Position numbers and translations under genes: made by a program. A stretch of 64,000 bases of DNA from Catenulispora pinistramenti. GTDB lineage: Bacteria; Actinomycetota; Actinomycetes; Streptomycetales; Catenulisporaceae. The notes under the pieces were generated by a model, which saw only the letters and a program-made list of their open reading frames with translations, was not told the DNA's origin and did not search any database. Where the stretch lies: NCBI RefSeq assembly GCF_018274385.1, contig NZ_JAAFYZ010000001.1:124001-188000 (forward strand), read 5' to 3'. Positions 1 through 56,200 of the stretch are shown here, one piece after another; the stretch's first letter is position 1; each line of letters begins with the position of its first letter.

Positions 1-3000
1 TCAGGGCACTGGCCTCGGCCCACAGCCCCCAGTCCAGAGCCACGGCGGCCAGACCGGAGCTGCGGCGACGCGCGGCCAAGCCGTCCAGGAAGGCGTTGGC
101 CGCCGCGTAGTTGCCCTGGCCCGAGCCGCCGAACGCGGCCGCCGCCGAGGAGAACATCACGAAGGCGTCCAGGTCCAGGCCCGCCGTCAGCTCGTGCAGG
201 TGCCAGGCGGCGTCGGCCTTGGGCCGCATCACCGCCGCCACCCGGTCCTCGGTCAGCGAGGTGACCACGCCGTCGTCCAGGACGCCGGCCAGGTGCACCA
301 CCGAGGTCAGCGGCCGGTCGGCGGGCACCGCGGCCAGCACTGCGGCCAGCGCGTCGCGATCGGCGGTGTCGCAGGACACCACCGAGGCCGCGGCCCCGCT
401 GTCGGCCAGCCGCGCGGCCAGCGCCGCGACCGCCGGAGCCGCCGGGCCCGAGCGGCTGGCCAGGACCAGCCGGCCGGCCCGGCCGGAGCCGGCCAGGTGC
501 CCGGCGACCAGTGCGGCCAGCGTCCCGGTGCCACCGGTGAGCAGGACCGTGCCGTCGCGGCGCGGCGTGGTCGGCACCGTCAGCACGATCTTGCCGATCT
601 GTCGGGCCTGGCTCATGAAACGCAGCGCGTCGGGCGCGCGGCGCACATCCCAGCACCGCACCGGCAGAGCCGTCAGGCTCCCGGCCGCCAGCAAAGAGGT
701 GATCTCGGCCAGCAGCTCGCCCAGCCGGTCCGGTCCGGCCTCGGCGGTGGAGAACGCCCGGTAGCGGACGCCGGGATGGTCGGCGGCCACCTGCTCGGCG
801 TCCCGGATGTCGGTCTTGCCCATCTCGATGAACGCGCCGCCGCGCGGCAGCAGCCGCAGCGAGGCGTCGGTCAGCTCACCGGCCAGGGCGTTCAGGACGA
901 TGTCCATGCCCTGGTTCGCTGTGCCGACCGCGAACTTCTCCTCGAAGCCGGCGTCGCGGGAGGACGCCAGGTGATCGTCGTCCAGGCCCAGGGCCCGCAA
1001 CGCGTCCCACTTGGCCGGGCTGGCGGTGGCGAACACCTCCAGCCCCAGATGCCGGGCCAGGTGGACCGCGGCCATCCCGACCCCGCCGGCCGCGGCGTGG
1101 ATCAGGATCCGCTGACCGGCCCGGGCCCCGGCCAGGTCGACCAGGCCGTACCGGGCGGTCACGTAGGCGACCGGGACGGCCGCGGCCTGGGCGTGGGTGA
1201 GCCCTGCCGGGACGGGGGCCGCCAGCCGCGCGTCGAGCACGGCCACCGGCCCGACCGCACCGGTCGCCATGCCGAGCACCCGGTCGCCGACCGCGATCCC
1301 GGTCACCGCGCCGCCGATCTCGGTGACCACCCCGGCGACCTCGCTGCCCAGCTGCCCGCGGTCCGGGTCCAGCTCCAGCGGCAGCAGGTCCAGCGTGGCC
1401 ATGACGTCGCGGAAGTTCACCCCGGCCGCGCGGACCGCGACCCGGATCCGGCCCGGGCCCAGCGGTTCCAGCGCCGCCGGGTGTTCGACCAGGCCCAGGC
1501 CGTCCAGGGTGCCGCGGTTCAGCACCGCCAGGCGCCAGGGCCCGTCGGCCGGCGGCACCAGCGTGCCGAACGGCCGGGACAGCCGCCGGGCCAGCACGAT
1601 CCCGGCCCGCACGGCCAGCTCCGGTTCGGCCGAACCGAGCGCCGCCAGGAGCGTGCCGACCCCGTCGGAGCCTTCGTTCGGCAGGTCGGCGAGGACCAGT
1701 CGGTCCGGGTTCTCGGACTGCGCCGAGCGGATCAGGCCCCACAGGGCGGCGCCGCCCAGGTCGCCGACGAAATCGCCGGGGCCGGTCGCGACCGCGCCGC
1801 GGGTCACCAGGACCAGGCGGGCCGACAGCAGTTCGTCGGCGGTGAGCCAATGCTGGGCCAGGGCCAGGGCGTCGGCGGTGGCCCGGCGGGCGGCGGCGGC
1901 TTCGTCGGCCGGGTTGTCGGCCGGGTTGTCGGCCGGGTGGTCGCTCTGGCCGCCGGTCTGGCTGCCGACCGCGGCCAGCACGGTGTCGGGCACCGGCGCG
2001 CCGTCCCGGATCGCCGCGACCAGCGCGGCCAGGTCCGGGAACGTCCCGGTGAACGGGATCGCGGCGGCCAGGCGATGCCGGTCCGGGCCGACCAGGACCA
2101 TGCGCCCGGCCGGGGCGTCCTCGGCGACCGGGGTCCAGTCCAGGCTGAACAGCCCGTCCCGGGTCGGGCCGGTGGCCGCGCCCAGCCGGGCCGCCGGCAC
2201 CGGCAACGACACCATGGACTCCACCGACAGCACCGGGAGCCCGGAATCGTCGGCGACGGCCAGGGTCAGCCCGGAGCCCTTGGCGTCCACGCCGAGCCGC
2301 ACCCGCAGCGCGCCGGCCCCGGAGGCGTACAGCGTCACCCCCTGCCAGGCGAACGGCAGCAGGATCTCGCCCGGTCCGGCTTCCCCGACCACCGGACCGG
2401 CCAGCATCGAGGCGTGCAGGACGGCGTCCAGCAGCGCCGGGTGCAGCCCGAACGCCGCGGCCTCGGCCGCCGCCGGTTCCGGCAGCCGGACCTCGGCGAA
2501 CACCTCGGCGCCGCGCCGCCACACCGCGCGCAGGCCTTGGAAGACCGGGCCGTATCCGTACCCGGATTCGGTCAGCCGCTCGTAGAAGCCGTCCACCGGG
2601 ACCGGCGTCGCGTCGGCCGGCGGCCAGGCCGCCAGCCCCTCCACCGTGCCGGGGCCGACCACCGGGGCCAGCAGCCCGGTGGCGTGCCGGGTCCAGCCGG
2701 TCAGCTCGTCGGCGTCGACCGGCCGGGAGTGGATCTCCAGCGTCCGGTAGCCCTCGGCGTCCGCGTCGGCCACCCGCACCTGGACCTGCACCCCGGCGTT
2801 ACCGGCCGGCAGTACCAGCGGCGTCTCCAGGGTCAGCTCTTCCAGCCGGGGGCAGCCCGCGACGTCGCCGGCCCGGACCGCCATCTCCACGAACGCGGTG
2901 CCGGGCAGCAGCACCACGCCGCCCACCGCGTGGTCGGCGAGCCAGGGCTGCAGACTCGGCGCCAGCAGACCGGTCACCAACAGGCCGCCACCGGCCGCCA

Positions 3001-53200: not shown

Positions 53201-56200
53201 GCCGGCCAGGGCCAGATCGCACTCCCCGTCGCGCAGCGACTGGCAGGCCAGGTGCAGGGCGACCAGCGAGGAGGAGCACGCGGTGTCCACGGTCATCGCC
53301 GGACCCTCGAGCCCGAGCAGGTAGGACAGGCGGCCGGACAGCACGGCGGCGGCGGTTCCGGTGCCGCGGTGGCCCTCCAGCTCCTCCGGCAGGCCCTGGC
53401 CGTAGTCGGTCGCGGTGGCTCCGACGAAGACCCCGGTGCGGCTGCCGCGCAGCGTGGCCGGATCGACGCCGGCCCGTTCGAGGGTCTCCCAGCCGGCCTC
53501 CAGCAACAGCCGCTGCTGCGGATCCATCGCCAGCGCCTCGCGCGGGCTGATCCCGAAGAAGTCGGGGTCGAAGTCGGCGACGCCGCGCAGGAAGCCGCCG
53601 CCGCGGGTGTAGTGGGTTCCGGCGCGGTCGGGATCCGGGTCGTAGACGCCGGCCGCGTCCCAGCCCCGGTCGGTGGGGAAGCCGGAGGTGGCGTCGACTC
53701 CGGCGGCCACCAGATCCCAGAGATCCTCCGGGCTGGACACGCCGCCGGGCAGGCGACAGCCCATACCGACGATCACGATCGGGTCGTCGGCGGCGGCGAC
53801 CGCCGTCGGCTGCGCAGCCGGCGTCGGTGCCGGGGCGGGAGTCTCGGCGACCAGCCGGGTCAGCAGGAACTCCGCGACCGCCGTCGACGTCGGGTGGTCG
53901 AACAGCAAGGTGGCGGGCAGCCGCAGACCGGTCACGGCGCCGATCCGGTTGCGCAGCTCCAGGGCCATCAGCGAGTCGAAACCCAGCTCGCTGAACGCGC
54001 GGACGGCGTCCACGTCGGCGGCGCCGGCCAACCGCAGCACCCCGGCGGCCTCGGTCCGGACCAGGTCGGCGACGATCCGGTCGCGCTCGGCGCCGGTCAC
54101 CCCGGCGAGCTGCCGGGCCAAAACGCTTCCGGCACCGGGTGCGGTGGCGACGGCCGCCTCCGCGCTCTCGGCCGACTCGGCGACCTCCGGCAGATCGGCG
54201 ATCAGCGGGCTCGGCCGGCGCAGCGTGAAGATCGGCGCGAAGGTGGCCCAGTCGATGTCCGCGACGGTGACCGGGTCCTCATCGGTGTCGATGACCTCGC
54301 CGAGGATCCGGACCAGCGCGGCCGGATCCATCGGCCGCACACCGCGCCGCCGCACGTGATCTGCACCGGACACGCCGCCCAGGCCGGGCCCGGCCCACAG
54401 CCCCCACGCCACGGACGTGGCGGGCAGGCCGCGCGAGCGCCGGTTCTCGGCGAGCGCGTCCAGGTAGGCGTTGGCCGCCGAATACCCGGGCTGCAGACCG
54501 CTGCCCCAGGTGGCGGCGATCGAGGAGAAGAGGACGAACGCTTCCAGGTCGCGGTCCGCGGTCAGCGCGTCGAGCAGGGCGGCGCCGTTGGCCTTGACGT
54601 CCAGGACGTCGGACAGTTCCTCGGCGGTGGTGTCGGCCAGTGCGGTCTCCTGCAACACACCGGCGGCGTGCAGCACGGCGCTCAACGGCGGGCCGTCCGC
54701 GTCGATCCGGTCCAGCAGTGCCGAGAGCTGCTCCCGGCTCGCGGTGTCGCCGGCGAGGACGTCGACCGCGGTCCCGCGGTCGGCGGTCGCGGCGGCCAGG
54801 CCCGCGACGCCGTCGGCGAGCGGGCCGGTGCGGCTGGTCAGGACGACGCGGGGCGCGGCCCGACCGGCGAGCCAGCCGACCACGTGCCCGGCGACGGCTC
54901 CGGTGCCGCCGGTGATCAGGACGCTGCCGCGCGGAGTCCAGCGCCGGCCGTCGTCGCCGCGCTTCCCGGCGCGGACCAGGCGGCGGGCCAGGACGCCGGT
55001 GTCGCGCAGCGCGAGCTGGTCCTCGCCGTAACCGGCCAGGACGCCGCGCAGGCGGCCGGCGGTGTCGGCGTCGAGCCCGGCCGGGAGGTCGATCAGGCCG
55101 CCCCAGCGGTCCGGGTGCTCCAGGGCCGCGACCCGCCCCAGACCCCAGGTCTGGGCCTGGGCCGGGGAGGTGAGATCGGCGGTCCCGGGCGCGGCGACCG
55201 CGCCGGAGGTCAGGACCCACAGCGGCGCGGTGATACCGGCGTCGCCGAGGGCCTGGATCAGCGTCTGGGTACCGGCCAGACCGGCCGGGGTCTGGCCGAA
55301 GCCCGGCAGCGGGCGCTCGTCCAGGGCCAGCAGGGACAGGACGCCGGCGGCGTCTTCGAGGTCGAAGGCGGCGAGCGCGGCGGCCAAGGCGGCGCGGTCG
55401 CTGAGGACGGCGTCGTCGGCACGCAGGACCTGGACCCGGCCGGAGCCATCCGTCAGTGCCCTGACACACTCGTCGAGCCGGGCGGTGGCCTCGGCGGACG
55501 CGACGACGAGCCAGGAGCCGGTCGCCGCGGTGGGACCGGGGTCGGGCATCGGGACCCAGGACGCCTTGTAGCGCCAGCTGTCGGTGGCGGCGCTGTCGGA
55601 CAGACGGTGCTCGGTGGTCGTACGCGGCCAGTAGCGCTGACGCTGGAAGGCGTAGGTCGGGAGCTCCACGGCCTGGCCCTCGCCGCTCACCGCCGGCCAG
55701 TCGATGCCGAGCCCCGCGCCGAACGCGGTCGCGAAGGCCCGGATCAGCCGGTCGGCACCGGGGTTCTCGCGCTCGACGGTGCCGGTGACGAGGTTCAGTT
55801 CGCCACCCGCGTCCTCGACGGTCTCGGCGACGGCCATCGTCAGCACCGGCTGCGGCGAGACCTCGATGAAGGAGCGGTGGCCCTTGCCCGCCAACGTCCG
55901 GACGGCATCGGCGAAGCGGACCGTGTCGCGCACGTTCGCGAACCAATACCCGGCATCCAACTCGGGACCTTCAAGCCACTGGCCGGTGACCGTCGACACC
56001 ATCGGGATCCGGGCCGCCCGCGGCTCGATCCCGGCCAGACCGTCGGCCAGCACGCCTTCAAGCGCGTCCGTGCCGGCGGAATGCGCCACGTAGTCGACGG
56101 CCGGCAGCCGCCACCGCAGCACCCGCTGCTTAGCCAGCTCCGCCTCGAAAGCGTCCACCGACTCCGGCTCACCGGACACGACGGTCGCAGCGGGAGAGTT

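What the first reader, a model, noticed from the sequence alone, without database searches (positions are those of the whole stretch)
1..53800. Four-module acyltransferase order repeated twice: malonyl, class I, class II, methylmalonyl
By motif, modules A2-A3-B1-B2 and C4-D1-D2-D3 use the same series of four AT classes. The KR types also agree for the first three positions (B, A, B). The KS-AT blocks of B2 and D3, the two fourth positions, are strikingly alike, including the linker starting ALCSQAERLR. This fits duplication of a four-module segment followed by divergence: gain or loss of DH-ER at the fourth position, and different gene breaks. It predicts a repeated motif in the product.
Basis: partly seen in the sequence, partly recalled or inferred. 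Interest (0 to 1): 0.7.

Follow-up and report, generated by a model that had tools for sequence, protein, structure and literature searches.

The report
Repeated extender-unit order, converted AT domains
A giant bacterial assembly line for a many-hydroxyl polyketide does use the same order of building-block selectors twice, but the selectors look alike largely because they recombine with each other, and the surrounding parts do not show one simple four-module duplication.

Summary
The AT order is real and longer than reported. In the full 20-module PKS (seven genes, four in the window) class I, malonyl, I, II, methylmalonyl, malonyl occurs twice: A1-C1 and C3-E1. A congener keeps it. KR types agree at A1-B1/C3-D2, then part. 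One clean four-module duplication is not supported: joint KS pairing is disfavoured (p-AU 0.038), and B2 and D3 KRs belong to different families (p 2.5e-77). Where same-type alternatives exist, the proposed partners rank 8th of 9 matchings. The linker ALCSQAERLR also occurs in G3, outside the series. An old, overwritten block duplication is not excluded. AT likeness is renewed by AT-confined recombination: orthologous silent identity averages 84% in AT (down to 71) against 93% in KS, and in the congener B1 and D2 ATs are more alike than orthologs. One shorter segment (B1 KS-AT linker to B2 AT = D2 to D3) pairs in most regions. Classes I, II and F2 (8 of 19 extension modules) form one AT clade beside an fkbK-ACP-fkbI-fkbH cassette, with no methyltransferase found nearby; they are probably hydroxymalonyl-ACP transferases making contiguous polyols.

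The parts
44288..58480 (-). PKS gene A (modules A1, A2, A3)
34423..44274 (-). PKS gene B (modules B1, B2)
15356..34384 (-). PKS gene C (modules C1-C4); start chosen at the docking-domain head, the open frame runs to 35041
1..15316 (-). PKS gene D (modules D1-D3), cut by the window; the ACP of D3 lies outside
55769..56677 (-). AT of A1, class I (YVAH): first position of the six-module series
51326..52195 (-). AT of A2, malonyl (HAFH)
46619..47527 (-). AT of A3, class I (YVAH)
41548..42456 (-). AT of B1, class II (FVAH)
36778..37677 (-). AT of B2, methylmalonyl (YASH)
31784..32659 (-). AT of C1, malonyl: sixth position of the first copy
27116..28024 (-). AT of C2, class I; between the two copies
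22385..23293 (-). AT of C3, class I: first position of the second copy
17735..18601 (-). AT of C4, malonyl
12680..13588 (-). AT of D1, class I
7961..8869 (-). AT of D2, class II; 92% identical to B1 AT. In congener G002 the B1/D2 pair is 97% (silent sites 92%), above both orthologous comparisons
3227..4123 (-). AT of D3, methylmalonyl; module D3 has DH, ER and a KR of the reducing-module family
36778..42888 (-). Segment from the B1 KS-AT linker to the B2 AT, matched in most regions with D2-D3
3227..9220 (-). Segment from the D2 KS-AT linker to the D3 AT, counterpart of the B1-B2 segment

Best explanation
The window holds 12 of the 19 extension modules of one cis-AT type I PKS in a Catenulispora species. 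The chain order is most likely G (loading module, three reducing modules), then A, B, C, D, E, F (thioesterase). The modules fall into a few families (class-I, malonyl, class-II, methylmalonyl), which tend to share a kind of AT, KS-AT linker, KS and KR. The order of these families is repeated: A1-C1 and C3-E1. This order was most likely built by small duplications and recombination, for example a segment from B1 to B2 copied as D2 to D3, and by exchange of reductive regions (B2 against D3). A single four-module copy is not what the domains show. ATs of one class are kept alike by recombination confined to the AT domain (gene conversion), which is why ATs suggest a cleaner duplication than the rest of the protein. 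Function, inferred: class I, class II and F2 ATs load hydroxymalonyl-ACP made by the FkbK, ACP, FkbI and FkbH homologs encoded between genes F and G, so eight of 19 extensions bring an alpha-hydroxyl. With KRs in every extension module, A1-B2 and C1-D2 would give blocks of three to five contiguous oxygenated carbons. Shown: architecture, AT order, its conservation in a congener, AT-specific loss of orthologous silent identity, one whole-AT homogenisation. Inferred: substrates, gene order in the chain, product, the order of duplications.
For: Architecture: 20 KS, 20 AT, 20 ACP, 19 KR domains. Orthologous cluster in congener G002, on three contigs, with the same AT class in all 20 modules. Orthologous silent-site identity: KS 92.9, KR 91.0, ACP 96.4, DH 90.9, ER 91.8, AT 83.9; lowest for the ATs of C3 (71), G3 (72) and B2 (74). 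AT minus KS silent identity: +1.4 to -4.3 for the four ATs whose best paralog is 52-81% identical (G1, F2, G0, A2), -2.7 to -21.2 for the 16 with a paralog of 84-94%; Spearman -0.84, p 4e-6, 20 modules. G002 B1/D2 AT: silent identity 92% against orthologs 84 and 81, falling off at or just inside the AT edges. Joint-constraint AU tests; KR families; within-type matchings. Class I, II, F2 and the VAHS-type ATs of Kitasatospora humi and genome G402 form one clade (18 rows, SH-aLRT 99). FkbH: TIGR01686, 353.8 bits against cut-off 146.65, with acyl-CoA dehydrogenase, ACP and 3-hydroxyacyl-CoA dehydrogenase beside it. Butyrolactol A: the same four kinds of gene in the same order, and labelling that supports hydroxymalonyl-ACP (PMC5355916, parts 1 and 2 of 3 read).
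Against: Direct signs of conversion are few: in the run-length test 2 of 124 AT pairs reach global p<0.05 (0 of 124 for KS, 0 of 124 for KR), and within-genome excess over cross-genome silent identity stands clear of noise only for B1/D2 (6.0 points; maximum among unrelated-class AT pairs 4.2). KR shows a weaker trend of the same kind (Spearman -0.50, p 0.029, 19 modules). E1, E2 and F1 ATs have close paralogs yet keep 95, 94 and 91% silent identity; genes E and F are more conserved throughout (KS 96-99 against 88-95 in A-C), which may explain it. Inside the B1-B2/D2-D3 segment the ACP-KS linker is not a best pair (rank 3 and 5), and G3 is as close to B2 as D3 is. No AT of this clade has been assayed in anything I saw.
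Confidence: 0.6

Rival explanations
1. A segment of about five modules (A1-B2) was duplicated as C3-D3, and later recombination among same-type modules erased most position-specific likeness.
For: Order of module types repeats beyond chance; the unbiased scan picks this register for the non-AT regions together (P=0.025 for four modules, 0.015 for five), for KR (four modules, P=0.015) and for the KS-AT linker (five modules, P=0.017); single KS pairs are not rejected by AU; KR matching ranks 1 of 9.
Against: Same-type partners at other positions are as close or closer (KS 8th, post-AT regions 7th, all non-AT regions 8th of 9 matchings). KS of A3 and D1 are 68.9% identical, rank 12 and 15 of 19, though KS shows no sign of recent conversion. 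Joint KS pairing p-AU 0.038. KR of B2/D3 and C1/E1 rejected. Gene breaks do not fit the register except B2|C1 and D3|E1, whose tails and heads look unremarkable by eye.
Confidence: 0.25
2. The series repeats because the product needs a repeated polyol motif, and the modules were recruited one at a time; no block was ever copied.
For: Domains pair by module type more than by position; K. humi and G402, with the same AT clade, show other orders in the stretches read.
Against: Does not explain the pairing of B1-B2 with D2-D3 in most regions from linker to AT.
Confidence: 0.15
3. On substrate only, independent of the history above: class I and II ATs are ordinary or relaxed methylmalonyl ATs, or use methoxymalonyl-ACP, rather than hydroxymalonyl-ACP.
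For: They keep GHSQG and their clade is nearest to methylmalonyl ATs of K. humi and G402, then to those of this cluster.
Against: Distinct RW...VAHS lid region and clade; a tryptophan before the lid shared with ATs of the concanamycin and ansamitocin producers that I take to load methoxymalonyl, in the RXR stretch tied to carrier recognition (PMC4207774, passages). Four-gene fkbK-ACP-fkbI-fkbH cassette and no methyltransferase among the 14 ORFs scanned between F and G and in the near flanks; three of those had no family match.
Confidence: 0.2

Closest known systems
Concerted evolution of AT domains in rapamycin-family, ansamycin and polyene PKSs (PMC4256081; passages seen)
   Same: AT domains homogenised inside a cluster while KS domains may not be; AT conversion seen even between two clusters for one compound
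   Different: Here examined with the orthologs of a congener at silent sites across 20 modules, with one tract that ends about at the AT edges and with the extender order unchanged
Butyrolactol A PKS (PMC5355916; parts 1 and 2 of 3 read)
   Same: 3-hydroxyacyl-CoA dehydrogenase-like gene, ACP, acyl-CoA dehydrogenase-like gene and FkbH in the same order, no O-methyltransferase near, contiguous polyol
   Different: Four hydroxymalonyl units there, eight candidate modules here; different starter. Its AT sequences were not compared.
Kitasatospora humi and Streptomyces genome G402 PKS clusters (no product known to me)
   Same: Five ATs each of the same VAHS clade in the stretches read, with FkbH in the same stretches
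   Different: Other module order; a KS followed by weak carrier-domain matches in place of the thioesterase end seen here
PKSs of the concanamycin producer S. neyagawaensis and the ansamitocin producer A. pretiosum (identity of the clusters and their methoxymalonyl modules is my recall)
   Same: One or two ATs with a W before the YASH position; FkbH beside the S. neyagawaensis PKS
   Different: FAGH or YASH lids, placed outside the clade of class I/II ATs

Membership tests
   six modules in fact
   Only B2/D3 pair; joint constraint p-AU 0.038. Single pairs not rejected.
   By identity three of four are best or near-best pairs; in the KR tree only A3/D1 are sisters (80/77), A2/C4 and B1/D2 not rejected, B2/D3 rejected at p 2.5e-77. 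In the post-AT tree B1/D2 pair (100) but A2 and A3 have other partners or none.
   By identity A3/D1 (rank 1,2) and B1/D2 (1,1) yes, A2/C4 (2,7) and B2/D3 (7,8) no; no separate ACP tree was built
Concerted evolution by gene conversion (AT) | Paralogs within a genome more alike than orthologs | tested here: met
   B1/D2 in G002; no other pair stands clear of noise
Concerted evolution by gene conversion (AT) | Orthologous silent identity reduced in ATs with close paralogs | tested here: met
   E1, E2 and F1 little affected
Concerted evolution by gene conversion (AT) | Significant mosaic tracts between paralogs | tested here: inconclusive
   2 of 124 AT pairs global p<0.05
Hydroxymalonyl-ACP-using PKS | fkbH, fkbI, ACP and fkbK homologs in the cluster without the O-methyltransferase | tested here: met
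   absence judged on 14 ORFs between F and G and in the near flanks, three without any family match; a methyltransferase elsewhere in the genome was not sought
Hydroxymalonyl-ACP-using PKS | ATs accept hydroxymalonyl-ACP | not testable with these tools
   needs an enzyme assay or labelling

The most novel reading that the evidence does not exclude
This is an assembly line in which eight of 19 extension steps use hydroxymalonyl-ACP, through an AT lineage that arose from the methylmalonyl ATs of such clusters and separately from the methoxymalonyl-type ATs. Its two main AT subclasses (I and II) are placed in a repeated order and maintained by AT-only gene conversion. The product would be a polyol with several stretches of three to five contiguous oxygenated carbons, built from twice as many such units as butyrolactol A.
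Probability: 0.5. Interest if true: 0.6.

Novelty: new member of a known kind. Interest (0 to 1): 0.42.

Why it matters
Here the orthologous cluster of a congener shows that AT likeness is renewed by AT-confined recombination while the extender order stays fixed, so AT trees can mislead about module history. The exchange edges (B1/D2 in the congener) show where nature replaces an AT with no change of class, which bears on AT engineering. The cluster also points to an uncommon AT clade that may serve hydroxymalonyl-ACP in many modules.

Tried and rejected
Run-length gene-conversion test: mostly negative. Within- against cross-genome silent identity: only B1/D2 stands out. Docking heads and tails as support for the duplicated register: A and D heads are alike, which does not fit it, and B2|C1 and D3|E1 are not specially alike by eye. 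A separate ACP tree was not built. Literature for a named product: among the titles listed butyrolactol A was the only close case I recognised; aflastatin A and blasticidin A were considered for the K. humi and G402 clusters from memory only, and the passages seen concern isolation and synthesis, not biosynthesis. A labelled hydroxymalonyl AT of an actinomycete was not obtained.

Trees use the sequences of the own genome only.

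Full report
WHAT IS THERE. The window is C1:124001-188000 of an 11.46 Mb draft genome. The genus is Catenulispora: a 1,501-base stretch of a C. rubra record matches one of the ten genomes held for the genus at 100%. All PKS genes run on the minus strand. Outside the window the assembly line goes on: genes E, F and G follow D, with a loading module in G and a thioesterase-like end in F. In all there are 20 KS, 20 AT, 20 ACP, 19 KR, 8 DH and 7 ER matches (the ER match in F1 is partial). The chain order G-A-B-C-D-E-F is inferred from the loading module in G, the thioesterase-like end in F, and the E tail and F head, which differ from the others.

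THE OBSERVATION. AT motifs give, from G1 to F2: M P P I M I II P M I I M I II P M M P II (the last, F2, is FVAH but only about 60% identical to class II). The longest non-overlapping repeat is six modules, A1-C1 = C3-E1. Label shuffles give P=0.0015-0.004 for six or more; four or more among all 19 is not unusual (0.11-0.16), for the 12 window modules it is 0.033, and five or more there 0.0038. KR types match at A1-B1/C3-D2.

DOES THE REST OF THE MODULE PAIR? The KS tree is star-like. With LG+G4 its best-supported pairs are C3/D1 (94), B2/D3 (93) and C4/D2 (91); with the mixture model only C3/D1 is starred. Single KS pairs: A2/C4 p-AU 0.13, A3/D1 0.23, B1/D2 0.14, B2/D3 already sisters (83/90), A1/C3 0.59 (held tree slightly better), C1/E1 0.095. 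Post-AT regions of the 11 non-reducing modules, with A2/C4, A3/D1 and B1/D2 forced: 26.4 worse, p-AU 0.067; with A1/C3 too 0.047; the free tree there has B1/D2 (100), C1/C4 (97) and A3/C3 (79). KS-AT linker: p-AU 0.13. AT itself: 0.055, and 0.0037 with A1/C3. KRs form three families: reducing modules, A-type and B-type; B2 is A-type and D3 belongs with the reducing modules, so these are not sisters (p 2.5e-77), nor are C1/E1 (3.9e-7); A3/D1 are sisters (80/77), A2/C4 (p 0.095) and B1/D2 (0.24) are not rejected. No separate ACP tree was built; ACP identities favour A3/D1 and B1/D2 but not A2/C4 or B2/D3.

TYPE OR POSITION? But when A1, A3, C3, D1 and A2, C1, C4 may be matched with any partner of the same type, the hypothesised matching ranks KS 8, KS-AT linker 4, AT 7, post-AT linker 9, KR 1, KR-ACP linker 7, ACP 4, and all non-AT regions together 8, of 9. 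Six-pair means (fewer where a region is missing) against random same-class pairs: KS P=0.25, KS-AT linker 0.064, AT 0.080, KR 0.20, ACP 0.091, others above 0.4. So module types repeat in order, with little position-specific likeness. B1 and D2 have no same-type alternative; their KS-AT linker, AT, post-AT linker, KR, KR-ACP linker and ACP are mutual best, and the next KS (B2/D3) are sisters. Exceptions: the ACP-KS linker between them ranks 3 and 5, G3 is as close to B2 as D3 is in KS, linker and AT, the KS before (B1/D2) ranks 11 and 6, and the reductive region after does not match.

WHY THE ATs LOOK SO ALIKE. A congener, G002, carries the orthologous cluster on three contigs, with the same AT class in all 20 modules. 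Orthologous silent-site identity (four-fold sites) averages 92.9 for KS but 83.9 for AT, lowest in C3 (71), G3 (72) and B2 (74). AT minus KS silent identity is +1.4, +0.9, -2.2 and -4.3 for the four ATs whose best paralog is 52-81% identical (G1, F2, G0, A2) and -2.7 to -21.2 for the 16 with a paralog of 84-94% (Spearman -0.84, p 4e-6); KR shows a weaker trend (-0.50, p 0.029). E1, E2 and F1 are little affected (95, 94, 91), in genes that are more conserved throughout. Along the genes the fall is mostly in AT and, in some modules, its near linkers. In G002 the ATs of B1 and D2 are 97% identical with 92% silent identity, above the orthologs (84, 81), and the likeness falls off at or just inside the AT edges. 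Against this: the run-length test finds 2 of 124 AT pairs (KS 0, KR 0), and within-genome excess is clear of noise only for B1/D2. Exchange with another strain is not excluded for single ATs. AT concerted evolution with unconverted KS is already described (PMC4256081, passages).

WHAT THE CLASSES MAY LOAD. Between genes F and G lie homologs of FkbK, a free ACP, FkbI and FkbH. No methyltransferase appeared among 14 ORFs scanned there and in the near flanks; three of these had no family match. Butyrolactol A has the same four kinds of gene in the same order, and labelling supports hydroxymalonyl-ACP for four units (PMC5355916). Class I, II and F2 ATs, five ATs of K. humi and five of Streptomyces genome G402 form one clade (SH-aLRT 99), nearest to methylmalonyl ATs of K. 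humi and G402 and then to those of this cluster, and apart from the ATs of the concanamycin and ansamitocin producers that I take to load methoxymalonyl (80 rows, quick tree; rows added were picked by motif; which of those ATs load methoxymalonyl is my inference from motif and recalled structures). FkbH lies in the same stretches as both other clusters. One of 392 sampled Streptomyces genomes had ATs above 450 bits; two others had one weaker match each.

PREDICTED PRODUCT (inference). If all eight are hydroxymalonyl modules and the KRs act, the chain carries a triol around A1, pentaols around A3-B1 and C2-C3, and a tetraol around D1-D2, separated by CH2 and CH(CH3) units and one isolated carbinol. 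The two copies of the series differ at the end because D3 and E1 have DH and ER.

VERDICT. The block-duplication reading is only partly supported. AT similarity is a poor witness here, because ATs recombine among themselves. The case is a new member of known kinds: concerted AT evolution and hydroxymalonyl-type PKS. Its unusual point is the number of candidate hydroxymalonyl modules.

Noticed in passing
C1:93838-97220 of the own genome (outside the window; L004): fkbK, ACP, fkbI and fkbH homologs between PKS genes F and G, the probable source of hydroxymalonyl-ACP.
   Followed up: yes
Gene G, about C1:93838-71597, loading KS G0 (L003-L004): The loading KS has DTSASS in place of DTACSS: alanine where the active cysteine stands, rather than the glutamine of a usual KSQ (recalled).
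   Followed up: no
Module F2, C1 about 98,180-104,110 (L004): A class-II-like AT sits with DH and KR in the last module before the thioesterase-like end; with hydroxymalonyl this would give a 2-hydroxy-enoyl (2-oxo) end, recalling the 2-methoxy-dienoate of plecomacrolides.
   Followed up: no
Genes A-F against G002 contig C68: Orthologous KS silent identity is 96-99% in genes E and F but 88-95% in A-C: uneven divergence along one cluster.
   Followed up: partly
C1, below 63278 (L001, L002): Two very large ORFs (5,945 aa, and at least 5,151 aa cut by the fetched stretch) with carrier motifs LGGDS of NRPS kind beside the PKS; probably a separate cluster.
   Followed up: no
window 59560-62378: MMPL-family transporter (59560-61623 +, PF03176) and a 4-phosphopantetheinyl transferase (61716-62378 -, PF17837 and PF01648) beside gene A; 58589-58909 (-) and 62657-63751 (+) have no family match in Pfam or NCBIfam.
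   Followed up: partly
C1:63416-71454 and C1:187850-189088 (L002, L003, L006): Flanks: a beta-lactamase-family protein, a P450, an ECF-like sigma factor, a PMT_2 glycosyltransferase-like membrane protein; at the other end, near the contig end, a DDE transposase.
   Followed up: partly
G402 C1:2216812-2330000 (L149-L154) and K. humi contigs (L124-L131): PKS clusters with five VAHS-type ATs each, an FkbH gene and a KS followed by weak carrier-domain matches, possibly PKS-NRPS hybrids of polyol tetramic acid kind (recalled idea, not tested).
   Followed up: partly
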